Shown piece by piece: positions 6,569 through 61,800 of a stretch of DNA of 64,000 nt (its first letter is position 1; every line of letters begins with the position of its first letter). Made by a program: the position numbers and the translations under genes. The notes beneath the pieces were generated by a model. The model did not search any database, had not been told where the DNA came from, and was given only the letters and a program-made list of their open reading frames with translations. Origin of the DNA: Agarophyton chilense (taxonomy: Eukaryota > Rhodophyta > Florideophyceae > Gracilariales > Gracilariaceae); NCBI GenBank assembly GCA_030374765.1, contig JARGXX010000033.1, forward strand, positions 434,001 to 498,000, read 5' to 3'.

Positions 6569-6634
6569 CTTGAACCGGGTTGACCTTCAACAAACAAACC
6601 GCTAAAATTGTTACGATTCGAAATCAAAGCGCTT

Positions 6635-7153: not shown

Positions 7154-7158
7154 GTCCG

Positions 7159-18315: not shown

Positions 18316-19227
18316 TGTAGAGCAACGCCCAGTCAGGGGATACTTGAAGATGCAACTCATAGAATGAGGATTGAACCCTCCAAGGGTTATGATTATCATC
18401 CCCTCTAAGGTGTGCTGATGTGGCACTGTTTTCTGGTTATATTTCGCATATAAGGGAAAATTCGGATGGCCCATGGTTGGATTGGCCCCGTGATACACGT
18501 GGCTTAATTTTGGCACCGATTTTCGGATATTTGTAGAACGTTGGACTTTTGGACCCCGACAGTTGGATCTCCACGTGTATGGCCCTGAGCAGGTGTGCAC
18601 TACTGTAGAGTTTAGTTAGTGGGCCCTACTTAGGGAGATGAGATCGGACAGTCCGAAGCTCAGAGTAAATGGTAACCAAGGTTGGTCTTCGATACCTTTA
18701 GAGGTTCTTCGTCGCCATCGTTTCGGCTTTACAACCCGGAACGGGCTCTGGTTAGCAACGCCTGCGTAGGGACACGACTCCACTTGGAGAGTGCCTACGT
18801 TTGGGTTCCGTGCAACCACCCCCTTGGGACCGCTCAGACGACCTGCGTGCACGATACCCCGTGGGGGTTCTGCTTACTTGTTGCGTGCTTTTTGTGTTTC
18901 CTTTCGAGGACAGGTTTTCGCCCCTGTATTGGGTTTCTTTTGTTGTTTTGCCCCTTTTCTGGTTCTCGGGTCCGGTGCCTGTTAGTGCCCGACCCTCGCC
19001 CCGTTTTTCCTCTTCGCCGGATTTCCCCCATTCTTTGGGATACCCATACCCATTCCCGATCCACGGTTTCTACCCCTCACCTCCGTCGGTACTGCCGGAA
19101 TCCCCCGTGGGAGTTACACCCCACACTACGGGTGGAACGGAGGGCTCTGTCTCTGAGTCTGCCTCCCCCAGGGAGCAAGGCTTCGAACACCTTGAGAGCA
19201 CTTCCCGTCGCCGGGTTTTGCTCCACA
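18316..19227 (+). repeat. RE2 5' LTR
   Basis: 912 bp, starting TGTAGAGCAACGCC and ending TGCTCCACA. Matches 27654-28568. Open frames inside it occur in both copies only because the LTRs are duplicates. Confidence 0.93.
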
Positions 19228-19229
19228 AG

Positions 19230-19247
19230 TGGTCTCCCGACTTAGAA
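19230..19247 (+). promoter_or_regulatory. Primer-binding site
   Basis: TGGTCTCCCGACTTAGAA begins two bases after the LTR end. The leading TGG pairs with the CCA end of a tRNA. The same sequence follows the LTRs of RE4 (54596) and RE5 (44272), and with one change RE6 (56426). The predicted primer tRNA has an acceptor 5' strand CTCCCGA and discriminator A. I cannot name its amino acid. Confidence 0.85.
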
Positions 19248-19454
19248 TCCGTTCTCGGACTTTTGAGTTGGTCATCCACGTGTTGGAATATCTCTTGGAA
19301 GAGGAAGCACCGTCGAGAAGATTTGTTGTAGTGGTTCGCTTTGGAAAGGGTGGAATTGGTTTTTATTTTTGTTTTGTGTTACGTCATCCGTTCTCCGGGA
19401 ATCTCGTGATCGAATTTCATCGTTACCCCGAATCGTCGGTGTCGTGTCTGCAGC

Positions 19455-21485
19455 ATGTCGCCGATTACCCGTGGTTCCAGGACTGGATCGAACCGTCAAG
19501 CGGATTCAGTGCCCCCGGCCCCGCCTAGGTCGAGGAGCTCTATTCCCGAAGGTCGGAACGATTCCGGTATCGATCCGGACACTCGGAGAGTACCCTCAGT
19601 GGTTTCAGGTCCTCGAGAGGTCATGGCTGTGGGCCCAGCTCCAGTGGTGGAGACCCTCTCAGCAGCACCCCGGAGTCGGGCCGACCCTGAATTACAGCGC
19701 CTGGAGACTCGAATCGATATCGCCAACGCGGCTCACATCGAGCTCCTTCAGGAGGTTACTACCCTCCGCCTCAAGGTGGAGGACGCCCAGCTGCGGGGAG
19801 TCGCCGATGACCTTCGTACCCTGAGGAGGGATGTGAACTTCCTTTTGGAAAGCTTTGGTACCCCTGGGGTCTTTATCCAGGAGTACCGGAGCCTTGTGGA
19901 GGAACACCGCGTGCAAGCGGAACGCTTCCGAGCTCGGCTGGACACCCTCGAGGCCATTATCCGTATGGACGGAGACGCAGAAGCCTCGAATGATAAACCC
20001 GAAGTTTCGGAAGACGAAGAACACCGCTCCGCTAAACGGGACCGCCGCAAGTCAAAGAAGAGGGTTCACCTCCAAGAGGATTTATCGGATTCCGATCCCA
20101 ATCGCTCGCCATCGAGTTCGTCCTCCGAATCTTCGGATAGTGAAGATGAACGCCGGTCATCCCGGGCGACTCGGTCGAAGGCTACTTACACCTCTCAAGG
20201 GGCAATCCGTACCCGGAAGAAGGGTAGGAAACACCTTGGATTAAGGGAGCTGAAGCCGACGAATCCTCTCTATCGGAAGCTGCTATCGTACCGCTATTAC
20301 CGGTTGGATAACCCTTCGGGAGATCGAACATCCCGCGGAACGGGTAAGGTCAAGGACTACATCAAAAGGCTGAGCATCACCCTACAGAAGAGGGAGTTCA
20401 CAGGAACAGACCCAATTCTGGTGCTCGATTTCCTTGCGAGGTTCGTCCAGGAGGCTGACATCCTCGGTATGAGTGAAGCGCAAGCGTATCTTGCATTACC
20501 CTATTTCTTAAAGGGGATGGCTGAAGACCAGTTCAACTCCGTCCGTGGATCATCCCGAGCCTCGGAAGGAGGAGTCACGTGCTGGCCCGAAGCGGTGCAG
20601 TACCTCTTGAGGTCATACGCTACTGTAAATGCGATTCAGGAAGCAACCCTTGCATTAAGGGATACGCGGCAGAAGCCGATGGAAACCGAAACGGTGTATT
20701 CAACTCGCTTGAATAAAGCGTTTCACCGATGCGGGAATGTATTCCCCGCCTACGAGAGATGCTCCGTGTTTGTGGATGGTTTGGACCCTTCGATAAGGAC
20801 ATTGGTTGCCCGACATCGGGAAGAGAAGCGCAATCTGACCTACTTGGAACTGGTTCAGTACGCCCAGGCTGAAGGGGATACTCTCCGTGCCCGGCAGAAC
20901 CGAAAGAGTCGGCCGACACGTGCACTCCTCGCCGATGGAGGTAACTCGTCTTTGTCACTCGCAGGAGGCCCTGCCTCTGTGGGGGTCAATGATAACATTC
21001 ACTTCATGGGAAGTAACCCCGAATCTATGGGTACGTCTGAGTTGCCGTCGACATCCGCTCCGACTACGGATGAAGACCCTGCGCTCTATACCCAAGGCCG
21101 AAGGGTGCCAGCGGCATCGCTACCTTTTGCGAATACCGCTGCTCGGTTCTCTCGCCCCGGATGGAGGGATACAGCACCACGTCGCGTGGATTCACGTCCA
21201 CAACCGAACCCGGCAGAGCTGATTTGCTATTTGTGTTACCTCCGCGGTCACAAAGCACCAGACTAGACATTTCCCCTGCGGGAGGGTTCACGAATTATCG
21301 CTCACTACGAGGCTCTGACCCCTGAGGAGAAAGCTCGAGTCCCGAGTAGGTCCTATGAGGAACAAAGGATACTCCGAGCTCACCTTGCTGACAGGGATAC
21401 AGAACTTGTACCAGCGAACGGGGAACAACCGGTCCCCTTCGAGGCAGCTGAACCGAATTCGATGAGGTCTGCTTCGAAAAACTAA
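19455..21485 (+). CDS. RE2 Gag (in-frame TAG at the zinc knuckle)
   Basis: The nucleocapsid precursor. The ATG at 19455 follows a 227-nt leader. Layout: disordered Ser/Pro/Arg-rich N terminus, a predicted coiled coil (about residues 75-175), an alternating Asp/Ser and Lys/Arg-rich stretch (about 180-260), then the helical gag core with YLALPYFLKGMAEDQ, CWPEAVQYLLRSYA, YSTRLNKAFHRCG and FVDGLDPSIRTLV. It ends with a CX2CX4HX4C zinc knuckle starting CYLCYLRGHKAPD. The fourth Cys codon is replaced by TAG at 21264-21266. The frame then stays open to TAA at 21483-21485, matching the gag ends of RE5 and RE6. The TAG is therefore either a single inactivating mutation or a readthrough stop. The basic core should bind element RNA and build the particle. 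Confidence 0.85.
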
Positions 21486-21512
21486 ACTTGGGAGTCTCCC
21501 CTGCGGGAGGGG
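21476..21512 (+). promoter_or_regulatory. Gag-Pol -1 frameshift site with downstream hairpin
   Basis: In the gag frame the end reads TCG AAA AAC TAA. Slipping back one base at GAAAAAC puts the ribosome in the frame that is open from 21482 through protease and RT. Eight to nine bases after the slip site lies CTCCC-CTGC-GGGAG, a five-pair stem with a four-base loop. RE5 (46485-46522) and RE6 (58779-58815) have the same layout, and in RE5 one stem pair changes from C-G to T-A. This is good comparative evidence for programmed frameshifting, though efficiency is unknown. Confidence 0.7.
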
Positions 21513-24500
21513 CGTCTTCTAAGCCGGAGTTGAAGACGCCCGAGGCGCTCCAGCTTCGCTCCCCAGCTGTGACTATCCTTTCAAGGAGAACGGCTGACAC
21601 CGACGTTAATTCGGGATACTTTAGTGTCCTTCGTCGCCTGTGGATACGGTCCCGTAATCTCCGTATTCCGGATCGAGTTATGGTAATGGCCAAGCGGAAT
21701 TATAAAGTATTCGCCGACTTCTGCCTGCCCAACCAGTTTATGGTTCGTCAAATATCTGTCCTGGATACAGGAGCCGCTCCAAACTTAATTCATGTTGAAT
21801 TGTTACCCCCGCTGCTCCGGGTCCAAGTTCGTACCGGTCCACGTTTGGATATCACCGATGCAAACAACAACGCGCTACGGACACTGGGTACAATTTCCCT
21901 CATGGTGAGGTTAGGCTCCTATATCGTTCAGCTAGAGTTTATTGTATGCAAGTCACTTGCAGCACCAGTCGTACTGGGTTGTGACTTTTGCGACCGCTTC
22001 GTGGAAGCCATCCGTCCTCGGAATAGAACTGTGGAACTCGAAGACGGGTGTACGATCCCAATCGTTCGTAAACCCTTACAGGGAGCAGCGCGAACACGCG
22101 TTCCTCTCCCTGTCGCGCAGGAATCTGTGAAGAAGGACCCGGTGTCTACACGGGTAAAGGTTGCGAAGTCAGTGGCTATCCCGCCAGAAACCCAGGTTTG
22201 GGTCACAGTTGTTACCAAGCAAATTGGTGTGCATGTGGTACAACCGAACCCGTCTCTGTATACGCGGCGTCAACTCGCCCTTGCGAATGGGGCTGTCTCC
22301 GTGGAACCGGATAAACCTTTCAAGGTTTTGGTAGCCAACTTTGGAAAGACAACGCAGCATTTGGTCAAACACCAGATCCTGGGTTCTGTTCTTCCACACC
22401 TGCATGCGGTCGTACCTACAAAGATCTCTATCGTAGAGGTCCTTGGTGTGGCGGACCCTAAGGAGGGGGAGGACACTGCCGAAATCGCGGAAGACGGTGA
22501 GCATACGACTGCAGCTCCACACGCTGAACACTTTAAACCTCAGAAGGTTACGGCCCCTATCACAGGAGCAGACCAGACGGATCCTGTTCAGGAATTGGAG
22601 AAATGGGATCTCAACCATGTACCCGCATCTCATCGGGAGAAGCTGAGGCACATGCTTCGTGAATTTACCCCCATGTGGGATGGTTCCCTTGGAACTATTA
22701 GGATTACAGAACACCGCATCTACTTGTTACCGAACACTCGGCCTATTGCCCAACACCCTTACAGGGCTGGACAGAAAGCTTGGGAAGAGGAGAAATCTCA
22801 GGTGGAGAAGATGCTTAAAGCGGGCGTAATTGAACCTGCCCAGTCCGCTTGGGCCTCACCAGTGGTGTTAGTTCCGAAACCGGATGGATCGTGGCGTTTC
22901 TGCATCGATTACAGACGCCTGAACGAGGTAACCATTAAGGATGTGTACCCGATCCCTCGGATGGACGAATACATCGACTCCCTTGGGAGCGCTACTGTTT
23001 TCTCTACCCTCGACGCCAATTCGGGCTACTGGCAAGTCCCTATTAGGGAGGAAGATCGAGAAAAAACGGCTTTCGTGTGTCACCAAGGACTTTTCCGATT
23101 CCGGAGGATGCCTTTTGGGTTGACAAATGCCCCCGCAACGTTTCAACGGGCGATAGACATTCTGTTGGCTCCCTTCAAGTGGAGGACGTGTCTAGTGTAT
23201 TTAGACGACATTATTGTCTTCTCCAACAACCTGGATGACCACCTCGAACACGTCAGGGACGTAATGAAAATACTCCGCGACGCGGGAATCACCTTGAAAC
23301 TCAAGAAGTGCGAGTTTTTCACCGATTCGGTTAAGTACCTGGGTCATATCATCCGTCCCGGACAGCTTTCAATCGATGAAGTACGAGTGAAATCCTTGAA
23401 GGAAGCAAAACACCCGAAAACTCAAACGGAGTTGCGATCCTTCTTAGGTCTGTGTAACGTGTATCGCCGATTCGTCCCGAACTTTGCGGATATTGCCACC
23501 CCCCTCAACAGGCTCCTGACGAAGGGACAACCAGTTGAACTGGAACTTTTTGGCGACGCGGAAGCGTCTGCCTTCACGGCATTGGTGAATGCCGTAACAT
23601 CACCGCCAATCTTGGCTCTACCCAATCCTGGGCTCCCTTACAAAGTGGACACCGATGCTAGTGCAAACCAAGTAGGGTGTGCACTGTTCCAATCCTCTGA
23701 GGATGGTGAACGTCACCCTATTGGGTACTGGTCACGTTCCCTGAATGTCCATGAAAGGAACTGCTCGGTCTCTGAGAAAGAATGTTTAGCCGTCGTGTGG
23801 GCCTTAGCTACACTTCGCCCCTATCTGATGGGTACTCGTTTCAAAGTCCATACGGACCACGCATGCTTGCGTTGGCTCCTGGAGATCTCCGAACTCTCGG
23901 GCCGCCTTATGCGCTGGCGTCTCCGACTGTCGGAATTCGACTTTGAGATCCTGTACAAGAAAGGGAAGCTGAACACTCAGGCTGATGCACTATCTCGCTT
24001 GGGAACGGAAACTGAAACTTCGGATACTCCCGAACCTGGGCCCGCTCCCTCAAGGGCCCAGTCAACGAACTCTTACAGAGTTACTCCCCCACCGGAGGTA
24101 ATCAAGCCTCCTGGCTCTCCGCCTGAGGAGGGGGAGGAGGACTTAGTTCCTTCGCAGGACGATGTTTCGGCGTCAGCCAGGCGCCCTAACAGTGAATCTA
24201 GTTCTCACAGTGAGACGGCGAGCCCGACCGAGCCTGCGACAGAGAAGTCACAACCCCAACGTATGGGTAGCAACATCACCGCCGACCCAGCCGAGCACGA
24301 CGTCAGAAAAGATGACGAAAAGCCGCCTAGGGAGAGTCGTGTGGAGAACTCCGCACCCGGAACGCCTACAGAGCCGACGATCACCCGCCGCTGCGGACGA
24401 GACATTGAGTTGTCGCACACTCAAACCCCGCTTTCTCGGGAACGAGCTGTGTCAGCGGACCCGCACGGGGAAGATCTCGACGACAAGGTTGACCAAATTT

Positions 24501-24526
24501 GGCTCTCCGTTATGGAATGGGAATAG
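21482..24526 (+). CDS. RE2 Pol: protease, reverse transcriptase, RNase H (no integrase)
   Basis: Expressed by -1 shift from gag; the first internal ATG candidates lie near 21680. Domains in order: linker with MAKRNYKVFADF, a feature shared by RE5 and RE6; aspartic protease with VLDTGAAPN (about 21760) and the flap-region LGCDFCDRF (21975-22000); RT of the Ty3/Gypsy type with LDANSGYWQVP, MPFGLTNAP and the active site VYLDDIIVFS near 23200; RNase H with DTDAS (23650), EKECLAVVWAL (23780), HTDHACLRWLL and DALSRL (23990). All catalytic residues I can check are present. After RNase H the zinc-binding H2C2 domain, the DDE core and the GPY/F module are missing. The frame instead runs into about 160 residues rich in Pro, Ser, Glu and Thr and stops at 24526. 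It copies element RNA to DNA but would need integrase in trans. Confidence 0.9.
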   Translation, partial: LNLGVSPAGGASSKPELKTPEALQLRSPAVTILSRRTADTDVNSGYFSVLRRLWIRSRNLRIPDRVMVMAKRNYKVFADFCLPNQFMVRQISVLDTGAAPNLIHVELLPPLLRVQVRTGPRLDITDANNNALRTLGTISLMVRLGSYIVQLEFIVCKSLAAPVVLGCDFCDRFVEAIRPRNRTVELEDGCTIPIVRKPLQGAARTRVPLPVAQESVKKDPVSTRVKVAKSVAIPPETQVWVTVVTKQIGVHVVQPNPSLYTRRQLALANGAVSVEPDKPFKVLVANFGKTTQHLVKHQILGSVLPHLHAVVPTKISIVEVLGVADPKEGEDTAEIAEDGEHTTAAPHAEHFKPQKVTAPITGADQTDPVQELEKWDLNHVPASHREKLRHMLREFTPMWDGSLGTIRITEHRIYLLPNTRPIAQHPYRAGQKAWEEEKSQVEKMLKAGVIEPAQSAWASPVVLVPKPDGSWRFCIDYRRLNEVTIKDVYPIPRMDEYIDSLGSATVFSTLDANSGYWQVPIREEDREKTAFVCHQGLFRFRRMPFGLTNAPATFQRAIDILLAPFKWRTCLVYLDDIIVFSNNLDDHLEHVRDVMKILRDAGITLKLKKCEFFTDSVKYLGHIIRPGQLSIDEVRVKSLKEAKHPKTQTELRSFLGLCNVYRRFVPNFADIATPLNRLLTKGQPVELELFGDAEASAFTALVNAVTSPPILALPNPGLPYKVDTDASANQVGCALFQSSEDGERHPIGYWSRSLNVHERNCSVSEKECLAVVWALATLRPYLMGTRFKVHTDHACLRWLLEISELSGRLMRWRLRLSEFDFEILYKKGKLNTQADALSRLGTETETSDTPEPGPAPSRAQSTNSYRVTPPPEVIKPPGSPPEEGEEDLVPSQDDVSASARRPNSESSSHSETASPTEPATEKSQPQRMGSNITADPAEHDVRKDDEKPPRESRVENSAPGTPTEPTITRRCGRDIELSHTQTPLSRERAVSADPHGEDLDDKVDQIWLSVMEWE

Positions 24527-25317
24527 GAACTCCTATGGAGACACTGGAACCCTCAGGAATGGGAAAGAAATGAGTGAGATCCGTCGGGGACAGCTCAAGA
24601 GAGTGCTAGCGCGTGTCGAAAGCGCCACCTCACATGCGCTTGCGGAGTGGCAACCGGCGCCCGCGCATTTATGTGGCACACGTCGAATGGCACCGAGCCA
24701 ATCAAAATGCTCTGACGACCAACCGTCGCGCAAACCGCCTCCGTCGCACGGCGCGTTGCACAAGAGCAACCTTCGTCCCCGTAGCTCGGGTTGACGTTGA
24801 GGTCTTACCCCCCCTGAGATTGGAGACGCTACCGCGTCGCGGTTTCTCAACCGTCACGGAATCTAAGAACACCGTTGTTATCGGGAAGATCTCAGCTTTA
24901 AGAAGAATTCAAAACTGGGCCGGTTTGACTCCGTAGACGGAAGTTACAACGTAGCCCACAGGCCACTCGGCGCCGTTTGGACGAAGTGCTGAGACCCGCT
25001 CGCAACACGGAAAAGAACCCACCGGGGTGTGTATAGACCCTACGTTGACACCCTCAAGGGAACTAGAGCGTTCCAAGATGGAAGAGAAGCCCGAACAGGG
25101 AAAAGTGTACCCGCAGGAATTCGTTATCGATCGCATCGTGCGTCACATCTACACCCCCGAGGGAGAAGTCCGCTACCAAGTCCGATGGTACGGATTCTCG
25201 CCTGATGAGGATACAGTGGAACCCATTGAGCACCTTCCAAGGTCTAAGGTTTTATCCTATCACCGACGCGCTCGAGTAACCTTGCCTCCAAGTCTGGATC
25301 GTGCCCAAGTTGGGTAA
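24527..25317 (+). pseudogene. RE2 pol tail with chromodomain, out of frame
   Basis: Downstream of the pol stop and one frame off, 25110-25265 encodes FVIDRIVRHIYTPEG, YQVRWYGFSPDEDTVEPIEHLP and a closing helix. This is a chromodomain of the kind fused to the integrase C terminus in chromoviruses, where it directs insertion to marked chromatin. The frame ends at the stop at 25317, and there are stops between it and pol (24934-24936, and near 24950). Upstream in the same frame is MRLRSGNRRPRIY. With the integrase gone the chromodomain has nothing to guide unless it is expressed separately, for which no ATG is obvious near 25027. Confidence 0.75.
24637..24667 (+). repeat. 31-bp repeat unit shared with the antisense ORF region
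   Basis: Matches 25864-25894 at 30 of 31 positions (CGCTTGCGGAGTGGCAACCG...). Here it encodes RLRSGNRR in the pol tail. The second copy lies inside the antisense gene, where the minus strand reads AQAPVATPQADS. Confidence 0.85.
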
Positions 25318-25716: not shown

Positions 25717-27444
25717 CTACGGAAAGCCCGAGGAGGGACCCGCCCCACCGTTGGCATTCTGACCCTGATGGTACGCCGAGGCGAAAGCCAACATCTGGCT
25801 CACATCCGTCATACCCGGGGGAATCGGGATGCCCGCGTTCACGAGGCCTTGTCTCACACTATCCGCTTGCGGAGTGGCAACCGGCGCCTGCGCAAGGGTG
25901 TTCACACCCCACCCGGGGGGAGCAGATGGACCTCCACCGGATGCATTCGCCGCCGCAGCTGAGGTCGTTCCCACTGGTTGGAAGGGTGCAGATGGTTCCA
26001 CACGGAGTACTCCACTAGGAGCTGGCATGTCGTTATCCAACGCTGGATCGTCCAGGTCTACTGGAGGCTCGTACTCGTAATCGTCGGTATAAATGAACCC
26101 CGTCGGGTGTCCCACCGGCATCGGTCGAGGCGAGTCAATCAGCGCCCGTGCTTGCGCCGCGCTGATGCAAACCCCTTCGAAGGGATTGTAATAGACCCAG
26201 TTACCGGCGCCCGGATCGTACCGGCCAGGATACTTGTCTCGCGCGGATCCTTCCCCTGCGGGCTGATTTTCCACTGGAACTCGATCCCATTGGGTGTTGT
26301 CGATCACGTCCAAGATTGGATACAGGTCCTGCACGCTGCTGGCCGAACCCAACGCTGGGACAAGGTCGATCTGACGCATGATGGTCCGTAGCATCGGAGG
26401 AATATACCAGATACGGAAATGGTCATGAGCATCCCAGAGGAGGTGCGCCGCTACGCGGGCTGCCCACTCCGCTGCAACGACGGCCCAGTATCCCGAGTTC
26501 GGGTCGTGCATCAAACGAGACCCGATATAGTAGATGCATGGGGGCAGTTCAGCAAAGCACCCTCGGGGGACCTCGACCTTACTCCACCAAGCTGGAAGGG
26601 GCACGAATCGCCCAACCTTCGCCGTGTTATGGATACGCTCCAGTTCCACGTGAGGATACGGGACAAGGAACCCGAAACGGGAGCGCGAGCGGCGCTCGAA
26701 GCGCACGCGTCGATCGAACCCATACTGGGCAAACTGCCGTTGAAGGTACCTGAATTCTGCCGGAAGGATGGGACGACTCCATTGGAGCATATCTTCTCGG
26801 AGAGGAAAACCCGGTCCGCGGAACTCGGCTTCGGGAAAGGCTGCCAGGTTATCCCCATAGGAGACCTCACCGAACGTGCGGTAATAGGCGACATCGAACC
26901 CGTACTCCGGGGGAACCAGATGGTCAAAGCGTGACCTCTCCAATCGCTGGTAGGCCAGAGCCGCTATCGCTGCGCGCGCCTTGTCCAGGGACTCCCTGCG
27001 ACCGCGGTATAGATACTGAGGCTCTATGGCTACCCGCGCCCTCCAATCGGGAGAACGTACAACCTCGACAGGTAGGCCACCCGGCAATAAGCCGTCCTCC
27101 ACGTAGGAGTCGATGAGCTCATCGTCGCGAACCGCTGTCAGATGGAACCACGGAGCGCGGGAATATATCACCGGATCGGTAAGGGGACTCCACCTTCGAA
27201 AGGATTCGTTTGAGATCCAACCTCTGGAGTTTGCTACCAAGGGCATCGCATGAGCGGAGTTCCACGCCACCGCGGTGATGTCCAAATCCTCCTGAGGATG
27301 TCGGTTGCTCGCCGAGGCGGAAGGTTCGGCACCTGACGGAGCCGCATCCAAACCGGAGAAATATCCACCCTGCTGGGGAGCTTCGTTGTCCGCCGGCGCG
27401 GAGGCCGATGGCCCCGAGAGTGGGTTGAAGACGTATGGGTTCAC
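25717..27444 (-). CDS. Antisense ORF of RE2, conserved novel protein (575 aa)
   Basis: Encoded against the element, convergent with pol. The open frame extends to a TGA at about 27555. The first codon used here is GTG at 27444 (NPYVFNPL), with no ATG before residue 67, so the true start is uncertain and may come from splicing. Layout: disordered Ala/Ser/Pro N terminus with a GGYFSG motif (27-31), a conserved core (95-360), a second block with YPGR, VYYNPFEG and HPTGF-YTDDY (405-455), a low-complexity Pro/Ala/Gly stretch and a short C-terminal helix (SVRQGLVNAGIPIPPGM). Core motifs shared with RE5 and RE6 are RRSRSRFGFLVPY, ELPP-I-YIGS, and AAHLLWDAHDHFRIWY; shared with RE5 only (outside the visible part of RE6) is APWFH-TAV. 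The core has many Arg and aromatic residues and no transmembrane helix or signal peptide, so it is not envelope-like. I recognise no family. Aligned preservation across three LTR families implies selection on the protein. Confidence 0.8.
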   Translation of the reverse strand: MNPYVFNPLSGPSASAPADNEAPQQGGYFSGLDAAPSGAEPSASASNRHPQEDLDITAVAWNSAHAMPLVANSRGWISNESFRRWSPLTDPVIYSRAPWFHLTAVRDDELIDSYVEDGLLPGGLPVEVVRSPDWRARVAIEPQYLYRGRRESLDKARAAIAALAYQRLERSRFDHLVPPEYGFDVAYYRTFGEVSYGDNLAAFPEAEFRGPGFPLREDMLQWSRPILPAEFRYLQRQFAQYGFDRRVRFERRSRSRFGFLVPYPHVELERIHNTAKVGRFVPLPAWWSKVEVPRGCFAELPPCIYYIGSRLMHDPNSGYWAVVAAEWAARVAAHLLWDAHDHFRIWYIPPMLRTIMRQIDLVPALGSASSVQDLYPILDVIDNTQWDRVPVENQPAGEGSARDKYPGRYDPGAGNWVYYNPFEGVCISAAQARALIDSPRPMPVGHPTGFIYTDDYEYEPPVDLDDPALDNDMPAPSGVLRVEPSAPFQPVGTTSAAAANASGGGPSAPPGWGVNTLAQAPVATPQADSVRQGLVNAGIPIPPGMTDVSQMLAFASAYHQGQNANGGAGPSSGFP

Positions 27445-27640
27445 TCCCTTGAGAGGGCTGGTTGAGACTGCTGTTGCGAGAAGTTGCTTATCGCCGAAAG
27501 TCGGAAGAGTAGAAGAAAGTGTACCGATGTGCCGGTTTTGTGGCGATCCTCAGAAGTGGTGAAGGACCCCATTGGGAGAGAAGTATATATGGTGACCGTA
27601 AAGCGAGACACCCGCGGCTCGGAATGTTCTTCCTCGTCTT

Positions 27641-27653
27641 AAGGAGGGGAAGA
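27641..27653 (+). promoter_or_regulatory. Polypurine tract of RE2
   Basis: AAGGAGGGGAAGA directly before the 3' LTR primes plus-strand DNA synthesis in this class of element. A similar GAGGAGGGGGAGGAGG lies inside the pol tail at 24125-24140. Confidence 0.85.
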
Positions 27654-28568
27654 TGTAGAGCAACGCCCAGTTAGGGGACACTTGAAGATGCAACTCAGAG
27701 AATGAGGATTGAACCCTCCGAGGGTTATGACTATGATCCCCTCTAAGTTGTGCTGAGATGGCACTGTTTTCTGGTTAGAGTTCGCCTATGAAGGGAAGAT
27801 TCGGATGGCCCATGGTTGGATTGGCCCCGTGATACACGTGGCTTAATTTTGGCACCGATTTTCGGATATTTCTTAGAACGTTGGACTTTTGGGCCCTGAC
27901 AGTGGGATCTCCACGTTTATGGCCCTGAGCAGGTGTGCACTACTGTAGAGTTTAGTTAGTGGGCCCTACTTAGGGAGATGATATCTGATAGTCCGAAGCT
28001 CAAAGTAAATGGTAACCAAGGTTGGTCTTCGATACCTTTAGAGGTTCTTCGTCGCCATCGTTTCGGCTTTACAACCCGGAACGGGCTCTGGTTAGCAACG
28101 CCTGCGTAGGGACACGACTCCACTTGGAGAGTGCCCACGTTTGGGTTCCGTGCAACCACCCCCTTGGGACCGCTCAGACGACCTGCGTGCACGATACCCC
28201 GTGGGGGTTCTGCTTACTTGTTGCGTGCTTTTTGTGTTTCCTTTCGAGGACAGGTTTTCGCCCCTGTATTGGGTTTCTTTTGTTGTTTCGCCCCTTTTCT
28301 GGTTCTGGGGTCCGGTGCCTGTTAGTGCCCGACCCTCGCCCCGTTTTTCCTCTTCGCCGGATTTCCCCCATTCTTTTGGGATACCCATACCCATTCCCGA
28401 TCCACGGTTTCTACCCCTCACCTCCGTCGGTACTTCCGGAATCCCCCGTGGGAGTTACACCCCACACTACGGGTGGAACGGAGGGCTCTGTCTCTGAGTC
28501 TGCCTCCCCCAGGGAGCAAGGCTTCGAACACCTTGAGAGCACTTCCCGTCGCCGGGTTTTGCTCCACA
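27654..28568 (+). repeat. RE2 3' LTR
   Basis: 915 bp, TGTAGAGC to CTCCACA. A promoter reading leftward would be needed within or near it to transcribe the antisense ORF, whose 5' end lies about 100-210 bp away. Confidence 0.93.
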
Positions 28569-28608
28569 AGTCCTGGGAAGAAACCCCCTTGAAGGGCATT
28601 GCACTTCA
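28569..28608 (-). repeat. 40-bp tip of an RE5-type LTR, abutting RE2
   Basis: Reverse complement of the first 40 bases of the RE5 LTR (43381-43420) with few mismatches. It begins exactly where the RE2 3' LTR ends. The rest of that LTR is absent on both sides, so this junction formed by rearrangement or by insertion plus deletion, not by a simple RE2 insertion. Confidence 0.75.
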
Positions 28609-34287: not shown

Positions 34288-34337
34288 AAGGGCCTTGCTT
34301 CTAAAGAGCAGGTCGTTGTCGAATCGTTAATCTCACA

Positions 34338-38837: not shown

Positions 38838-38945
38838 GAGTATCTGGAAAGCGTCAGAAAGGACAGAACTGCAAAACAAAAACGTCTGGTCAAATTTTTA
38901 TGACCAACTCTACTGAATGCGTTCCGCGATTCGGCCATAGGGGAC

Positions 38946-43380: not shown

Positions 43381-44268
43381 TGAAGGACAATGCCCTTCAA
43401 GGGGGTTTCTTCGCAGGACTTAGAGGTTTCGCTCGCTTGAGGACTAGCTTGGACTATGACAAGCTATACCGCTATTGCGTGCTGACGGCCGGTTAGGACC
43501 GGAAGTGCACACTGGTGGAACACGTGGACTGAACAGATGCCGACGCTCGAGTGCGAGGCGTGCCACACGTGGCCTGGATTGTACATATTGGTTAGTATTA
43601 TTTAGTCATTTTTAGTATTTATTTAGCTACGCTATCGCTATTTAATGTTTATTTTTCGGGCGCGCGCCCACTGTCAGGGGCCGCGCGCCACACTACTTAG
43701 GAGGTTGAGCACTGCTCCCCAGTAAACACCCTCTTGGGAGAGACCAAGGAGGGAGTCTTGGCTCTGAACTTTTCGCCCTCGGCGCGTCTTCACCGCATAC
43801 TGCGTGAGCGCCCGTTGCACGTTACTTCATCCACCCCTCTTTCGACCAGAGTGCTACCACCACCGTGGGTTCATATTTAATTGCCGACACTTGTCGCAGT
43901 CTCGCCCCTGTGTAGGGTTACGCCCCCGTTTTCCTCTTGTTCTCCTTTTTGGCTCTTGTTAGTGGCCGCCTCACTTACCTCGCTCGTCCACCTCATACGG
44001 GTGTTTCCTCGCTCCTTTTCCGACAATCGCCGTGATACCGCTCCGCCTAGGATTGGTCACACCCCGGACTGTGCCGTGCTCACCTAAACACTCTAGGTAT
44101 ATCCCGCCGGATTGGCATCGGTCTTACACCCGACTCCGTCGTGCCTTTCCAGAGTGGCTCTGTTTCTGTGCTCCGCTGGGACGCGTCTCCTCCGCCTGAG
44201 GCGTGTCCCTCAAGAGAGGAAGATCCCGAACATCTTCGTGGTGTCTCCGCTCCAAGCGTTGTCCTACA
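43381..44268 (+). repeat. RE5 5' LTR
   Basis: 888 bp, TGAAGGACAATGCCC to GTCCTACA. Aligns with 53675-54551 with scattered differences. Confidence 0.88.
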
Positions 44269-44271: not shown

Positions 44272-44289
44272 TGGTCTCCCGACTTAGAA
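44272..44289 (+). promoter_or_regulatory. Primer-binding site of RE5
   Basis: TGGTCTCCCGACTTAGAA, identical to the sites of RE2 and RE4, three bases after the LTR end. Confidence 0.85.
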
Positions 44290-48358: not shown

Positions 48359-50659
48359 TCTTCACAAACACCGTGACGAATCTCGGCCATTTTATCCGTC
48401 CAGGACGTGTTACAATCGAGGAGACTCGTGTTAAGTCACTCAAAAAGGCTAAAGAACCGCGGACGCAAACCGAGCTTCGTTCCTTTCTGGGACTCGCGAA
48501 CGTCTACAGACGATTCATCCCGCACTTTGCGGACAAAGCTGCACCGTTAAACGCGCTTTTGCGGAAAGGCCAAACACCAAAACTGGACCCCTTAACCCCC
48601 TTTCAAACGGAATCTTTCAACTCTCTTAAGGATTCTGTCGTCTCCGCCCCGATCCTCTCTTTGCCCAGGCCTGGAATGCCCTTCACCGTAGATACGGACG
48701 CCAGCGACTACCAAGTAGGTTGTGCACTGTTTCAAACTGCACCCAATGGAAAAAGACGCCCCGTAGGGTACTGGTCCCGATCGCTCAACGTTCACGAGAA
48801 GAACTACTACGTGTCGAAGAAGGAATGCCTTGCAGTAGTGTGGGCATTACAAACGTTGCGCTCCTATCTCATGGGTAATCATTTCACCGTTTTTACGGAC
48901 CACGCATCACTTCGATGGCTACTCTCCATCTCGGAGCCTTCAGGCCGCTTGATGCGTTGGCGTCTCCGTCTAGCGGAATTTGACTTTGACGTGCAGTACC
49001 GAAAAGGATCGTGCAACACCCAAGCCGATGCTCTCTCCCGCCTGGTCACTACTGGCGAAGCACTACCCGTCAAAGACGATGAGATACCCTGCTTTGCAGT
49101 GACTGGCGACGACGCTACCATCGAGGACGAGGAACGAGACACGGTCTCTTCAGATTCCGGTTCCGAATTGGACGACTTTCTTCTCTCGGAAGATTCCGAG
49201 AAACCCTTACCAGGGAAGTTCGTGCCTATTACTCTAGAGGACATGATACGGGAGCAATTCGCTGACCCGTTCTGCGCGAAGGTCCGCGCTCAACTCAATG
49301 GAGGAGGTACTCTCCCCTTTCAGGTGAATGACGCCGGATACCTTGTACGGACCGTCGGATCGCACCCACAAATCGTGGTACCACATAACCTCCAGTTGAG
49401 AGTATAGCAGATGTCGCTCTACTCCAAACTGAGTGGACACGTCGGGGGACGGAAACTTTACCTCACCCTACGCCGTAACTTCTACTAGCCTGCCATGGCG
49501 ATGAACTGCTACGCAACGGTGCGGTTTTGTAGCGATTGCGCTCGGAACCGTGTCAAACTCCGCCTTCATGCGACGAAGTTGAATCGGTTTCCAGCTCGCA
49601 CTCCATTGGAATTTGTGGCCATCGATAAACTCGGTCCCTTCCTTACCACTAAACGGAATTACAAGTTCTTACTCGTAATTACGGATCGCTTCTCCAAGCT
49701 GGTCCGGACCGTACTGTTAAGGAACATCTCCGCTATGAGCGTGGCTCAAGCCTTCGTCCTACACTGGGTCTTTGTTTACGGCCCACCGGTCAAACTCCTC
49801 TCCGATAACGGGAGACAGTTCGCCTCTCATTTCTTCGAGGATGTGTGTCGCATCTTAGACATTAAGAACCTGTTCACGACCACTTACCACCCCCAAACTA
49901 ATGAGCAGGCCGAACAATTCAACCGGACATTACTTGCGACACTCCGTCTATACGTTGCAGACCACCCCAAAGATTGACACTTGTTCACTGATGCGCTAAC
50001 CTCTGCGTACAATACGCAGGTGCACAGGGCACCTGGATTAACGCCCTTCGAGTTGGTACTAACCCGTACCCCACCGCCCGTGGCGCTGGAACCACAGCCC
50101 ACGCTGGATACCTTTCCGTCACCGACCGCTTACCGCGAAGCGTGGAAAACTTGGCTCACGAAGCTCGTTCCCGCCGCACGGCGTTCAATGGGCCGAGCCC
50201 AGGCCACTTACGAGCGTGACTTTGATACCAAAGCCCATCGCTCGCCGCCACGTCTCGCCCCCGACGGTTATATATTCATCCGCACGGAGTATTAAAACCC
50301 AGAGAAGGAGAAACGCCACAAGCTGTCACCCGTTGCCGACGGCCTTTTTCGGGTTATTTCTGTGGCTCCCGACACTGTCATTGTTGACCTCGCTGGTAAT
50401 CACGAACGCATCCCCCGCGATCGCGCGGTATCGGCTCCTCCGCCGTTAACATTCCAACCTGCTGGTGTGACTGCTCCCGTTGAAACGGATTCATGGACAC
50501 CCTTACCCCAGGCCCACCCGCGTCCCTACGCGTAATCACACCCATCTCGGGGTTTGTCTGACCTTCTGCTACCCGCGGCGCCCAACCCGCATGGAATCGT
50601 GTCGAGCATTCGTCGCTCCTCTCCAGTCCACCCGACGGACACCAACCCCGGTGCATCGT

Positions 50660-50672: not shown

Positions 50673-51574
50673 GGCGCCCGACAGCCGTCGTAGTCCGGTC
50701 GATACCGTCGCTGGAAAAGCCGCACCGTCGCGTGACATTCTTCGCCCATCAGAGGTGCCTGATACCGACGTCCTGCACGACTCGACGCAGTCGCTATCAA
50801 AGCCTTAAACCGCAACTGCGGATAACGCCACCAACACTCGCCGAGGTGTCACCACACGTGCAACACGGAATTCAAATGCGCTCGGCGCACCGCAGTCTGA
50901 TACAGTACGAGTGGACGACGCACCGCCAAGTACCCCGCACAGGGAGACGGATACATCCACGGCGCCGACGCCGGACAGCCAGCCATTGGAACGCTCACGT
51001 GACTACACGGAACCTCGCAGTGGGACAGAGATGTGCAACAATGCGCCACCGCCCCAGCGAATCTCACCGCCGAAGCGAGCTTCACCACGCCGATTAGCGG
51101 AACGACCACCCCGGATACGCGCTGGTGTGGGCCCTCCAACCGGAGTGGGAAGCGCCGAAAAAAACCTGGCACTTGGGGAAAATGAACCGCCGAAGTCGGG
51201 TCGACATTTTACTCAGCCGAGGACTGCCTTGCGCGCTACACGGTCCGACCGGAGCGAAGCTGCCCAAAGGGTGATCACTTCGGTACCCCCTGGCTCAGGA
51301 CGGGTACCACCCGTAAATAGCGACACCGTCATACGGGATGGCCGGGAAGTGTACCGAAAAGAGTTCGTGGTCGGACGTATTTTGTAGCACTCCTATCACC
51401 CAGAGGGGTATATCCAATACTTGGTCCGTTGGTACGGGTACGGCCCCGAATGGGATTCAGACGAACCGATAGAGTACCTACCTCGGCCAAAGGTGGTACA
51501 GTATCATCTTTGTACTATCACGGCTTTGCCGGCTACCGTAGACCGAGCCCAAGTGGGATAAAAAGACACCCGAT

Positions 51575-51773: not shown

Positions 51774-53639
51774 TTAGTTGGAAGAACCCGGATTGCCGTG
51801 CGCGCCAACCGAATCGCTAGCAGAGTTACTCCCGCCGGTCAGGCGTGCCACGAGGGCGTCTCTCATCGCACCGATGTCGCCGCTCGCCGCTTGCGCGTTC
51901 AGTCCAACACCCCGAAGGAACTGGAAGATCACGACCGCCTCTGGGCGTATGGGAACCTCAATAACTTCCGCTTCGTCCGGCAACGCCGCCGCCACTGGAT
52001 TGATGACCGCACCTGCGTGAGTCGCTCCGTGCGCCGGCTGCGCCGTAGTATTGGCACCATCGGGATCTCCAACGTCTTCCATGACCTTGTCGCCACGGTA
52101 TTCACCCTCTTCCTCCGGGAGATCATCACCGCAATAGGCGTACTAGAAGTCATCTGAGTTGACAAACCCCACGGGGTGCCCGTATGGTATGCCTCGCGGA
52201 GCCATCCGGAGTGCCAACGCCTCCGCCTCGAAGATCTCCTGCTGCTCCCATGGGTTAAAGAAGACTAAATCTCCCAACGGCGTGTGACGCCCCGGAGACC
52301 GATCAGCCCCACCGGCCTCTTGACCACGGCCGCTCTGCCGGATAGGCACGACAGCCCAGTCGACACGGCCAATGATGTCGATGAGCTCATGTGCTTCATC
52401 ATCGTTATTGACACCTCCAAGAGGGAGTTGAAGGTCCAGCTGCCGGATGTAACCACGCAAACGCGGAGGAAGATACCACAGTCGATACTGGTCGTAGGCT
52501 TCCCACAAGATGTACGCCGCGGCGCGGACTGCTCATTCGGTTAGGACCACGGACCATAAGCCGGAGTGCGGATCCTCAATGAGGTACGAGCCAAGATATG
52601 AGACGACTGGAGGCAACTCCACGTAACATCCCCGGCACACCTCGACGGAGGACCACCACCCAGGCAGGGGAACGTATCGCCCGAACTGATATAAGGGACT
52701 AATCCGGTTTATCTCCGTGTTCTGATAAGGGACAAGTAACCCAAAGCGGGATCTGCCCCGACGCTCTTCGCGGATGCAGTACTGTAACCACCGACATCGG
52801 GGCTCATGACGAAGGTGACGGAACTCGGCACGAATGATCAGACGGACCCAGCAGATCGCTTCTTGACGCGCACGCGGTTGACTGCGCCATGCGTAAGTTT
52901 CCAACGCCGCAAGGCGGTCACAATAGCCGATCTCACCCTGCGTCCGGTACATCCGTAGGTCGAAGCCGAATTCGTCGGGGATGGGGTATTGGAAGTTCGC
53001 CCGGCTGATCTGTGAGTAACCGATTTGGACAAATATACAATGCGCCTCTTCCGCCGACTCGCGCCTTTGCCGCAGAATCGCGTGAACGGGAACCGCCACA
53101 CGGCGTCGCAAGTCCCACGAAGTGGTGATCAAAGCCGGCAGCTCGCCCGGGAGACGCGCATTGCCATCAGCATACGCGGCCACCAGTTCTTCGTCAAAGA
53201 CCGCTGTCCAATGGAACCACGGAGCTCTCCGGGGAGTCGCCGCATGTTGACGCGGGTTTAACCAGACGAGTTCGTCATAACTGGGCCAGGTGTCCTCTAC
53301 AGGAGTGATATGGCTTGAAGCTTCAACGGGACCCCGGGATCGGCTCGGCGCGATTGACGGGGCACTCCCCCGCGGAAGGAAAGCCGAATGGAAACCGGAG
53401 AAGTAACCCCGGCGGGGATTGTTACCACCGTTCATCGGAAATACTGGTCGCCGAGGTATCGGGATGTGGTCACTGTAAGTTGGCGTACGATGCGGAAGAG
53501 CGCTCGAAGTTCGAGGAGTGGTTACCGCGTTGGTGCGTTTGTCGTTCGGTTGTGCAGCTCTGCCTTCGACAGTCCAGTGGTCGCTGGACGCGTTACGCGG
53601 CTCGCTCTTATGCCAGTTGGACCGTTGCCTCCCCGCCAT
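51774..53639 (-). pseudogene. Antisense ORF of RE5, conserved novel protein (two nonsense codons)
   Basis: A single frame of 621 codons from a good ATG at 53639 (MAGRQRSNWHKSEP) to the stop at 51774, with TGA at 52533 where RE2 has TGG and TAG at 52143 where RE2 has TAC. It aligns with the RE2 protein along the core: RRGYFSG, APWFHWTAV, LPGELP, RRRESAEEA, GFDLRMYRTQGEIGY, AEFRHLR, RRGRSRFGLLVPY, VELPPVVSYLGS, AAAYILWEAYDQYRLWY, SPGRHTPLGDLVFFNPW, HPVGFVNSDDF, and the C-terminal FQFLRGVGLNA helix. The N-terminal 70 residues before GGNNPRRGYFSG are not shared. The ATG lies only 36 bp from the 3' LTR, so transcription must start in that LTR or beyond. The function is unknown. Confidence 0.8.
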
Positions 53640-53659: not shown

Positions 53660-53674
53660 CTAAGGAGGGGGATA
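53660..53674 (+). promoter_or_regulatory. Polypurine tract of RE5
   Basis: CTAAGGAGGGGGATA directly before the 3' LTR start at 53675. Confidence 0.8.
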
Positions 53675-54551
53675 TGAAGGCGCCTCAACGGGGTTTCTTC
53701 CCAGGACTTGTAGATTTCGCTCGCTTGAGGAATAGGTTGGGCTATGACAAGCTATACCGCTATTGCGTGCTGACGGCCGGTTAGGACCGGAAGTGCACAC
53801 TGGTGGAACACGTGGACTGCATGGATGCTGACGCTCGAGTGCGAGGCGTGCCACACGTGGCCCGGATTGTACCTAATGGTTAGTATTATTTAGTAATTTT
53901 TAGTATTCATTTAGCTACGCTATCGCTATTTATTGTTTATTTTTCGGGCGCGCGCCCACTGTCAGGGGCTGCGCGCCACACTACTTAGGAGGTTGAACAC
54001 TGCTCTCCAGTAAAAACCCTCTTGGGAGAGACCAAGGAGGGAGTCTTGGCTCTGAACTTTTCACCTTCGGCGCGTCCTCACCGCATACTGCGTGAGCGCC
54101 CGTTGAACGTTATATCATCCTCCCCTCTGTCGATCAGAGTGCTACCACCACCGTGGGTTCATATTTAGTCGCCTACACTTGTCGTAGTCTCGCCCCTGTG
54201 TAGGGTTACGCCCCCGTTTTCCTCTTGTTCTCCTTTTTGGCTCTCGTGAGTGGCCGCCTCACTCACCTCGCTCGTCCACCTCAAACGAGTGTTTCCTCGC
54301 TCCTTTTCTGACAATGGCCGTGATACCGCTCTGCCTAAGATTGGTCACACCCCAGACTTTGCCGTGCTCACCTAAACACTCTAGGTATATCCCGCCAGAT
54401 TGGCCTCGGTCTTACACCCGACTCCGTCGTGCCTTTACAGAGTGGCTCTGTTTCTGTGCTCCGCTGGGACGCGTCTCCTCCGCCTGAGGCTCTCAAGAGA
54501 GAAAGATCCCGAACATCTTCGCGTTGTCTCCGCTCCAAGCGTTGTCATACA
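53675..54551 (+). repeat. RE5 3' LTR
   Basis: 877 bp, TGAAGGCGCC to GTCATACA, followed by GAGAG, the probable target duplication. Confidence 0.88.
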
Positions 54552-54595: not shown

Positions 54596-54613
54596 TGGTC
54601 TCCCGACTTAGAA
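54596..54613 (+). promoter_or_regulatory. Primer-binding site of RE4
   Basis: TGGTCTCCCGACTTAGAA, identical to RE2 and RE5. Confidence 0.8.
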
Positions 54614-58815: not shown

Positions 58816-61800
58816 CAGTCCATCCCGTAGTGCTGACCAGGAAGAGCTCGCCTCCCTGCTCCCGCGCTTGGAAACCTAAGATTCTCTTGAGGCCTCCCAA
58901 ATTTCCGCCGTACGGAATCAATCCGCCGGACGAAAAGCGAGTACAGTTTGACTGTGAGTTACATCGTCCTTGGAGACGTTATACTTGCCCGTCAAAACGG
59001 GAAAGTTACCTCATGGTAGTGTCTAAAAGAAACTATAAGGTCTATGCCGACATCGGCTCTGACAGGAATCTCTTATCTCGTCGATTGACTATCCTGGACA
59101 CAGTTGCTGGTCCAAACTTTATACGGGAATCAGAGCTCGCTTTTGCTGACTTAGAACGTATTAGATACGGTCCTTTACCGGATATCCGGGATGCCAACAG
59201 AAATGTTTTGAAGAAACTGGGAACAGTTCGACTCGTGGTGCGTTTGGGACGCTTTGTAGTCCTAGTCGACTTCATCGTCTGTAATACGTTAGCTGTACCA
59301 GTGATACTGGGATGTGATTATTGCGACAAGTTTGTCGAAGCCATTCGCCCGCGAAGAAAACTACTGGAACTAGATGATGGATCAATTGTAACAAATGTTT
59401 CGCAAGCCAATGCGTCGTTGCTCTGAAGCACCTCCACTTCCACCATCTATGGAATACGGGAAATCCGGAGGACGTATCCCGCCGAGGATTCGAGTAGCGA
59501 AGAGTGCCATGCTGAAGGCGCAAACCCAAACTTGGGTTCAAGTAAGAACAGAACGACACGGACTCGTCGTAATTCAACCGAATACTCGGATGTACGAATC
59601 CCGTGGATTGCTAGTCGCTAACTGCATTGTTCAGGTTGATCCTGATAGCCCCTTTTGGATACTAGTGAGTAACTTCACCGATAACGATTATCAGATACCG
59701 AAGAATCAGGTTGTTGCAACAGCTTCGCCTCATCCCACAGTGGTGGTCCCTACTCATATTTCTACTGCAGAAGTATTGGGATTAACCAATGTCGGTGACA
59801 CAGACGAAGAACTGCAAACTCCGTCCGGAGATCAATTGCAAATGGCAAAGGATCCAAAGAGCCTGGTCGATGAGCTAGACTTAGCACATGTGTCGGAACA
59901 CTACAGAACGAAGATCAGGTCTATGCTGAAGAAGTATACATCCATGTGGAGTGGAAAACTAGGAGAGATCTCCGCTACAGAACACCACATTGATTTGATC
60001 CCAGGGTCACGACCCATCTCCCAACCGCCCTACAGAGCGGGACCACGAACTCGCCAAGTCGAGGAGGAGAATGTCAGCAAAATGCTGGAAGAAGGAGTAA
60101 TCGAAGCAGCTCAATCTGCTTGAGCCTCACCAGTGGTGCTGGTTCTAAAACCTGATCGTTCTTTACGATTCTGTATCGATTATCGAAAACTGAACGCTGT
60201 TACAGTTCGAGTTACATACCCGTTGCCTCGAATGGACGAATGTATTGACAGCTTAGGAGAACGGAACGTGTTCACCACGTTGGACGCCAATTCTGGCTAT
60301 TGGCAGGTGCCTGTAGCGGAAGAAGACCAAGATAAAACCGCATTTGCGTGTCACGCCGGTCTCTACCCTTTCAAAAGGATGCCCTTTGGCTTAACAAATG
60401 CACTGGCTACTTTCCAGCGTACTCTGGACATCTTTCTCTCAAGATACAATTGGAAGACTTGTTTAGTCTATTTGGACGATGTGATCATTTTTTCCCAGGA
60501 TGTGGAAAGCCATTTACGGCATTTCGAGGAGATCCTCAAAGCACTACAGAGCGCAGGTATCACCTTGAAGTTCAAGAAATGCGAATGGTTCGCTGGCACC
60601 GTCCGGTACTTAGGACATGTGATCAAGCCGGGACAGCTTGCTATTCAAGAGGCACAAACAGCGGCTCTCCGCGAAGTACAACCTTCGTCGACACAGAAGC
60701 AATTGCGTTTGTTCCTCAGCTTGTGCAACGTCTACCGACGATTCGTGCCACGATACTCGCATATAGCGGCACAGCTCAACACAAAGCTGCGTTAAAGACA
60801 ACCAGTACAGCTGGAACAATTCAGACAAGCTGAAGCGGGAGCGTTCGACACTACAAAGATTATTACAGCCGCAGTCTTGGCGCTGCCCATCCCCAACCTG
60901 CCATACTCAGTGGATACCGACTCTAGCGAGTACCAAGTAGGGTGTGCCCTTTTTCAAACACACCCTGATGGTGAACGCAAACCCATTGATTACTGGTCAA
61001 GATCGCTGAACGCAGCTGAGAAGAAGAATTCAGTGTCAGAAAAGGAATGCTTTGCAGTCGTTTGGGCTCTAACCACATTGCGACCGTATCTCCAAGGAGA
61101 ACGTTTTATCCTCAACACGGATCATTCGTCTCTACGATGGTTACTGTCCATTACAGAACCGTCTGGTCGTCTCACACGATGGCGCTTACGCCTTTCTGAA
61201 TTCGATTTCGAAGTGAATTATAAGAAGGGATTGGCCAATGTCCAAGCTGACGGGCTATCGCGACTCAAAACACTGGGCGAAACCCAAGGCAAAATCGATG
61301 AAGAGATACCTTGCTTCTACATAGAGACCCATTCACCATCTTTTGAAGAAGAGGAAAAAGAGACCCTTGGTTATTATTCGGATGCAGACCCGTTCCCTGC
61401 ATTAGCAGACACTGACCCTTCAGTTCAACTCGAGCGATTCTCGTGCACTGAGCTCCTCAATGAGCAACATGCCGATAAGTTTTGTGCGTCGATACGCTCT
61501 CGTCTTAACGGGGGGGGAGGAGCTCCCCTTTTCCCTCGATTCACGAGGAACATTGTTAAGACATGTCGAAAAGCATGATCAAATCGTGATTCCACACGTC
61601 TTGAAGAGTCGAGTACTCCATTTGGCGCACTACAGCAGGCTGTACGGTCATCCAGGAGGAACGAAGTTGTTCATGACTCTAAGAAGATATTTTTACTGGC
61701 CTACTTTGACAATGGACTGCCATGCTACAGTGAGGTTGTGTAACACAAGTGCGAAGAATTGCATGAAGCTTTACAGGAAGCGGAAACCGATGAGGTTATT

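What the first reader, a model, noticed from the sequence alone, without database searches (positions are those of the whole stretch)
25717..27552. A conserved antisense gene between pol and 3' LTR in three related chromoviruses
RE2, RE5 and RE6 each carry one long ORF on the opposite strand at the same place: 25717-27552, 51774-53639 and 62999-64000. The three proteins share ordered motifs over about 400 residues (for example RSRFG-LVPY, a WY after LLWDA-D-(F/Y)R, SPGR/YPGR) plus a short C-terminal helix, while LTRs and low-complexity parts have diverged. Conservation in one minus-strand frame across three families is best explained by selection for the protein. Antisense ORFs are known in a few plant LTR elements (such as the Retand group), but I do not recognise this family. 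It has no transmembrane helix, so it is not an envelope.
Basis: partly seen in the sequence, partly recalled or inferred. Interest (0 to 1): 0.88.

Follow-up and report, generated by a model that had tools for sequence, protein, structure and literature searches.

The report
Antisense accessory gene in seaweed retrotransposons
Hundreds of copies of a mobile DNA element in a red seaweed carry an extra gene written backwards behind their usual genes; it makes an unknown protein that evolution has preserved, and one defective version of the element has spread without it.

Summary
In a red alga (four database relatives at 85-94% are labelled Agarophyton chilense), chromodomain-bearing Ty3/Gypsy elements RE2, RE5 and RE6 carry a ~610-620-codon antisense gene between pol and the 3' LTR. 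The window copies are damaged (two internal stops each in RE5 and visible RE6); uninterrupted copies exist elsewhere.

It is a real gene. Between families, codon positions 1 and 2 stay 50-58% identical while position 3 (29-33%) is near chance. The frame is far longer than chance. Capped lists give 72, 107 and 150 places. Where a pol match was listed within 8 kb, 29 of 30 (RE2) and 73 of 73 (RE5) aORFs lie tail-to-tail with it.

Pfam, NCBIfam, PHROGs and PDB sequences give no convincing match, and Gag none.

New: an RE2 derivative that lost about codons 75-390 of this gene occurs at 46 places, so the core is not needed in cis.

Antisense ORFs here are a known kind (plant Retand, Grande; fungal Boty). 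Eight searches listed none for red algae. Best reading: a trans-acting, probably nuclear accessory protein. The gene is secure; the function is inferred.

The parts
25717..27549 (-). RE2 antisense ORF (aORF), 610 codons plus stop; damaged copy (family-type start codon out of frame, first ATG gives 509 aa)
18316..19230 (+). RE2 5' LTR (96.8% identical to the 3' LTR; the last aligned base already belongs to the PBS)
19230..19247 (+). RE2 primer binding site, same 18 bases in RE5 (44272) and RE6 (54596); complementary to the 3' end of a tRNA gene with extra inserts (anticodon read by eye as GTA, tRNA-Tyr)
19410..21266 (+). RE2 gag frame (named by position and by similarity to RE5/RE6; no Pfam gag match)
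21452..24526 (+). RE2 pol frame: weak protease match, RT, RNase H; integrase part missing in this copy (present in family copy L061)
24955..25317 (+). RE2 frame with chromodomain (PF00385, 33.9 bits)
27640..27653 (+). RE2 polypurine tract (by position and sequence); the family-type aORF start lies about 70 bases inside it
27654..28571 (+). RE2 3' LTR, begins TG; inferred location of an antisense promoter
   Evidence: promoter is inference
51774..53639 (-). RE5 antisense ORF, 621 codons plus stop, with two internal stops (52533-52535, 52143-52145)
43389..44268 (+). RE5 5' LTR
44272..44289 (+). RE5 primer binding site
49489..49977 (+). RE5 integrase core (PF00665)
51388..51561 (+). RE5 chromodomain remnant (17.0 bits, below Pfam cut-off)
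53661..53670 (+). RE5 polypurine tract motif; 21 bases separate it from the aORF ATG at 53639
53677..54551 (+). RE5 3' LTR (aligned part)
54596..54613 (+). RE6 primer binding site
60124..61578 (+). RE6 RT and RNase H frames
62999..64000 (-). RE6 antisense ORF, C-terminal part with two in-frame stops, cut by the window end

Best explanation
A lineage of chromodomain-bearing Ty3/Gypsy elements in a red alga carries an antisense accessory gene that reads from just inside the polypurine tract back towards pol.

SHOWN: the gene is protein-coding and has been under purifying selection over a span in which third codon positions came close to saturation. It sits in the same place and orientation in three families of this genome. 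It has relatives of 31-48% identity in sequences from other, mostly unnamed sources.

INFERRED: it is transcribed from an antisense promoter in or next to the 3' LTR. It makes a soluble protein with a Trp/Arg-rich core, a probably disordered N-tail and a short C-terminal motif. This protein acts in trans, probably in the nucleus, to help the element, most likely by regulating its transcription or protecting it from silencing. Because it works in trans, an RE2 derivative that lost the core could still multiply on the protein made by other copies.
For: Codon-position identity between families 0.50/0.58/0.33, 0.50/0.54/0.29 and 0.50/0.51/0.32, against composition expectations of 0.25-0.28. The aORF frame gives the best of the six-frame comparisons and has no stops, against 8-29 in each of the other five frames.

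Within-family substitutions also favour this frame: RE2 shared variants omega 0.55, singletons 0.73; RE5 shared 0.82, singletons 0.90; shifted frames 0.98-1.70.

Tail-to-tail with pol at near-constant spacing in 29 of 30 (RE2) and 73 of 73 (RE5) aORFs that had a listed pol match within 8 kb; random control for the RE2 case: mean 0.5, maximum 3.

Relatives outside the window. No transmembrane-like stretch in seven proteins, maximum KD19 1.33. Deletion derivative at 46 places. Analogy: Grande GENE23 is nuclear and TRP28 is predicted to bind DNA (PMC7264820, PMC11963269, parts read).
Against: No transcript, promoter, localisation or binding evidence was available. There is no consistent nuclear localisation signal: C-terminal basic runs occur in P0003 and P0004 only of seven proteins. 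The deletion derivative also fits a gene that is dispensable here. The usual ATG is missing in 3 of 30 RE2 loci (L013, L021, L024) and 2 of 30 RE5 loci (L056, L059). By segment, shared-variant omega ranges 0.13-1.16 in RE2 and 0.46-1.11 in RE5 on small counts, and stop depletion among shared variants rests on 2 and 5 observed stops; one shifted RE2 frame shows a similar stop ratio, 0.33. Loci were ranked by protein similarity, so within-family omega is biased low. The protein diverges faster (36-40% identity) than gag (57-60%) or RT-RH (62-72% RE2 against RE5/RE6; 45-61% by piece RE5 against RE6).
Confidence: 0.5

Rival explanations
1. The antisense gene encodes an enzyme or structural helper (for example a nuclease or a particle component) rather than a regulator.
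For: Columns reported as invariant in the nine-row alignment include R224, E228, E265, E285, R286, R289, E326, E361 and two Trp, which could be catalytic. Bdelloid LTR elements carry enzymatic extra ORFs (PMC5408684, passages seen).
Against: No convincing match to any enzyme family in Pfam, NCBIfam or PHROGs, to PDB sequences or to Gag.
Confidence: 0.25
2. The gene is a past asset now decaying or dispensable in this host: conserved over the long term, but not needed for current amplification.
For: 46 places share one deletion of the core; the two fetched copies with it, L065 and L068, lie beside pol frames of 1542 and 1540 codons. Only 3 of 30 RE5 loci have an uninterrupted full frame. 0 of 8 RT-selected loci L065-L072 have an intact aORF (chosen among RT hits absent from the aORF list, so not a rate).
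Against: 20 of 30 RE2 loci have a frame of 610 codons or more reaching the C-terminus (selected on protein similarity), and within-family replacements are still below expectation.
Confidence: 0.17
3. What matters is the antisense RNA (dsRNA or siRNA control of the sense transcript), with the protein secondary.
For: Antisense transcription in other LTR elements may act through RNA (PMC7264820, part 2).
Against: Conservation follows codon positions, not the DNA as a whole; third positions are near chance.
Confidence: 0.05
4. Chance or shadow ORF without coding function.
For: Long antisense frames occur in GC-rich DNA; plus-strand shadow frames up to 271 codons exist opposite RE6 aORFs, and RE1 has a 289-codon antisense frame opposite gag-pol.
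Against: as above.
Confidence: 0.01

Closest known systems
Antisense additional ORFs between pol and 3' LTR (aORF-3R) of plant LTR retrotransposons: maize Grande gene23, rice RIRE2, Silene Retand ORF4, PvRetro13 (PMC7264820 parts 1-2 of 3 read; PMC11963269 part 1 of 5 and passages read)
   Same: Same place, same orientation, found in many copies and several families, no clear homology to other proteins, no envelope features.
   Different: Here the elements carry a chromodomain and live in a red alga; PMC11963269 (abstract) calls Retand a non-chromovirus lineage, found in Eudicotyledons and Liliopsida. No Transposase_28 (PF04195) match in the eight proteins scanned. Retand elements often have tandem-repeat arrays between pol and 3' LTR; one search lists only one short array there (53042-53082, in RE5).
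Boty of Botrytis cinerea (antisense ORF, as named in PMC7264820; original paper not seen)
   Same: Non-plant element with an antisense ORF between pol and 3' LTR.
HTLV antisense protein HBZ (from the background of PMC11963269)
   Same: Analogy only: antisense gene of a retroelement, nuclear; PMC7264820 notes an antisense promoter in the HTLV 3' LTR.
   Different: No sequence comparison made; the nuclear role here is inferred.

Membership tests
aORF-3R kind (antisense additional ORF between pol and 3' LTR) | Antisense to gag-pol, between pol and 3' LTR | tested here: met
   29 of 30 RE2 and 73 of 73 RE5 aORFs with a listed pol match within 8 kb; the LTR side was checked in the window elements RE2 and RE5 only
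aORF-3R kind (antisense additional ORF between pol and 3' LTR) | Present in most copies of a family | tested here: inconclusive
   Lists are capped; of 114 RT2 places 41 had an aORF in the lists the deletion junction and 63 neither
aORF-3R kind (antisense additional ORF between pol and 3' LTR) | Own antisense transcript | not testable with these tools
   No RNA data held
Plant Retand TRP28 antisense protein | Transposase_28 domain, PF04195 | tested here: not met
   No PF04195 match in five proteins nor in three family copies, at E up to 1. The genome search was also empty, but nothing rang in its controls, so absence from the genome is not shown
Envelope-like third ORF | Sense orientation and transmembrane helix | tested here: not met
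   Antisense; maximum 19-residue hydropathy 1.33 in seven proteins
Gag / capsid relative | Homology to Gag of the same element | tested here: not met
   hhalign probability 0.1% against the RE2 gag frame
Chromovirus (host element) | Chromodomain after integrase | tested here: met
   RE2 window frame 33.9 bits against cut-off 25.1; order integrase then chromodomain in L061, chromodomain there only 16.5 bits, below cut-off
Chromovirus (host element) | RT groups with chromoviruses in a tree | not tested
   No reference RT set used; brown-algal chromodomain Gypsy lineages are reported not to be related to chromoviruses (PMC12477816, passage seen)

The most novel reading that the evidence does not exclude
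A protein family with no known relatives, encoded antisense and acting in trans, forms a helper system: intact RE2 copies supply it, and a core-deleted RE2 derivative multiplies on it as a parasite. The conserved core may be a new fold found only in red algal retroelements.
Probability: 0.3. Interest if true: 0.75.

Novelty: new variant of a known kind. Interest (0 to 1): 0.57.

Why it matters
In the two papers I read, antisense accessory genes of LTR elements are described mainly from flowering plants, and their function is unknown. A second, apparently unrelated family in a red alga would show that such genes are a recurrent solution. This genome also offers a natural deletion series (175 or more undeleted against 46 core-deleted places by two patterns of 29 and 30 bases) with which to ask whether the protein is needed in cis, in trans, or at all.

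Tried and rejected
Led nowhere: viral contigs and genome contigs gave no relative. PDB by sequence gave only chance matches, E 0.29 or worse. PHROGs had one weak row, E 0.51. Pfam had weak rows only, E 0.014 at best, below the cut-off. NCBIfam had none. The sigma-70 promoter scan is for bacteria and was not used as evidence. Rfam found nothing in the window at its gathering scores. ARAGORN missed the tRNA gene with inserts, which Rfam found. An 18S identification of the host failed twice and was dropped.

Rejected: chance ORF, Env, Gag relative, plus-strand gene (see tests). I first thought the whole RE2 family lacked integrase because the window copy does; L061 and RT-bearing frames of 1500 codons and more elsewhere showed otherwise.

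Biases kept in view: L001-L060 were picked by protein similarity. L065-L072 were picked from RT hits whose aORF was not in the list (L071 was in that). The undeleted pattern differed from nearly all listed copies at 3 positions, so 175 is probably an undercount.

Full report
What was claimed and what is there. The minus-strand frame 25717-27549 is real: 610 codons without a stop. The RE5 counterpart (51774-53639) has two in-frame stops, and the RE6 counterpart (62999-64000) has two in its visible part and leaves the window. All three copies in the window are therefore damaged to some degree. In RE2 the start codon seen in most family loci is out of frame with the rest. Uninterrupted copies exist elsewhere in the genome: 20 of 30 RE2 loci have a frame of 610 codons or more reaching the C-terminus, 3 of 30 RE5 loci have a full frame, and one RE6-type locus, L064, has 611 codons.

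Host. The genome holding the window has 79.76 Mb in 135 contigs. Four database relatives at 85-94% identity are labelled Agarophyton chilense. The Rhodoexplorer paper gives G. chilensis as 76.07 Mb in 138 contigs (PMC10388701, passages seen). I take the host to be this species or a close relative; an rRNA check failed.

Element anatomy. RE2: LTRs 18316-19230 and 27654-28571, 96.8% identical; polypurine tract 27640-27653. RE5: LTRs 43389-44268 and 53677-54551, 93.0%. The same 18-base primer site stands in RE2, RE5 and RE6 (positions 19230, 44272, 54596). It is complementary to the 3' end of a tRNA gene with inserts, present at two places; I read its anticodon by eye as GTA. The aORF ATG lies about 20 bases (RE5) to about 70 bases (RE2 family) inside the polypurine tract, so a promoter for it would lie in or at the 3' LTR (inference). 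The RE2 window copy lacks integrase; family copy L061 has RT, RNase H, integrase and a weak chromodomain match in one frame.

It is a gene. Among uninterrupted copies of the three families (L003, L037, L064), codon-position identities are 0.50/0.58/0.33 (RE2-RE5), 0.50/0.54/0.29 (RE2-RE6) and 0.50/0.51/0.32 (RE5-RE6). Composition alone predicts 0.25-0.28, so third positions are near chance and the protein is what is conserved. The aORF frame scores best in a six-frame all-against-all comparison (E 2e-121 to 3e-87). The next best is a plus-strand frame whose third positions coincide with those of the aORF (E 6e-61 at best), and that frame has 21-29 stops. Markov sequences never exceeded 357 open codons.

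Within families, substitutions shared by two or more of 30 copies give omega 0.55 (RE2) and 0.82 (RE5); singletons give 0.73 and 0.90; shifted frames give 0.98-1.70. Stops among shared variants are at 0.36 and 0.29 of expectation, but on only 2 and 5 observed stops, and one shifted RE2 frame shows 0.33. By segment, omega ranges 0.13-1.16 (RE2) and 0.46-1.11 (RE5) on small counts. The loci were chosen for protein similarity, so these values are biased low. The between-family comparison is the stronger evidence.

Copy number and placement. Searches list 72 RE2-type, 107 RE5-type (N-part query) and 150 RE6-type (C-part query) places; all lists are capped and are lower bounds. Of the 72 RE2 aORFs, 30 have a listed RT within 8 kb and 29 of these are tail-to-tail with it. 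Of the 107 RE5 aORFs, 73 have a listed integrase within 8 kb and all 73 are tail-to-tail. Random RT places gave a mean of 0.5 for the RE2 case. RE1 and RE4, whose RT is only about 22-31% identical to that of the aORF group where alignable, carry no such gene in the window; RE1's 289-codon antisense frame lies opposite gag-pol and does not match.

Protein. No match in Pfam, NCBIfam, PHROGs or PDB sequences beyond chance. No relation to Gag. No transmembrane-like stretch in seven proteins. Relatives from other sources: P0002 48%, P0003 and P0004 33%, P0005 31%, P0007 66% over a part, P0011 32% over a part. The alignment (my reading) shows a variable N-tail with a short recurrent GYFxGF-like motif in RE2, RE5 and P0002, a core of about 370 residues rich in conserved W, R and E, a low-complexity linker, and a conserved C-terminal segment of about 30 residues. 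The protein diverges faster (36-40% identity) than gag (57-60%) or RT-RH (62-72% for RE2 against the others; 45-61% by piece for RE5 against RE6).

A derivative without the core. L065 and L068, found through RT, share one deletion of about codons 75-390 with the same junction. The junction occurs at 46 places (38 exact, 8 with one mismatch), with none for the reversed control pattern. A pattern from the undeleted sequence occurs at 175 places (probably an undercount). Ten of the 46 have a listed RE2 RT within 9 kb, all tail-to-tail. P0010, labelled Agarophyton chilense, begins at the first Met after this junction, so I infer it is the ORF of this derivative. The core is thus not required in cis. 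Either the protein works in trans or it is dispensable for current amplification. The six other RT-selected loci also have broken aORFs, but they were picked from RT hits absent from the aORF list.

Comparison. [quoted passage not shown]). In Retand elements, 97% of clusters encode a Transposase_28 protein predicted to bind DNA (PMC11963269, part 1 of 5 and passages read). The present proteins show no Transposase_28 match. Chromoviruses as such are reported from red algae (abstract of PMC3605345 in the listing). Eight literature searches listed no paper whose title or abstract start points to such a gene in red algae; the library lacks most subscription journals.

Verdict. A genuine antisense accessory gene of a protein family I could not match, in a new host group, of a known kind. 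Its role as a trans-acting nuclear regulator is the best guess by analogy and from the deletion derivative, not a demonstration.

Noticed in passing
L065, L068; 46 places in G000: One deletion derivative of the RE2 family lacking about codons 75-390 of the antisense gene has multiplied.
   Followed up: partly
window 19230, 44272, 54596; L073, L074: RE2, RE5 and RE6 share an 18-base primer site matching a tRNA gene (C68, two places) that has two apparent inserts (D-loop and anticodon loop); anticodon read by eye as GTA.
   Followed up: partly
window 8399-10150 (-): Single long frame with a MACPF/perforin domain (E 1.2e-9), between retroelements.
   Followed up: no
window 11843-13084 (-) and 13549-14757 (+): Two frames that look alike and membrane-protein-like by eye, in opposite orientation, apparently an inverted gene pair; no Pfam match.
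   Followed up: no
window 48235-48356: 58-base tandem duplication inside RE5 pol, where its RT frame is split.
   Followed up: no
window 1696-7154 and 34067-39785: RE1 and RE4, a second Gypsy group (related to each other: 31% over 381 residues of the gag part, 61% in RT), without this gene; RE1 has a weak chromodomain match (19.3 bits, below cut-off).
   Followed up: partly
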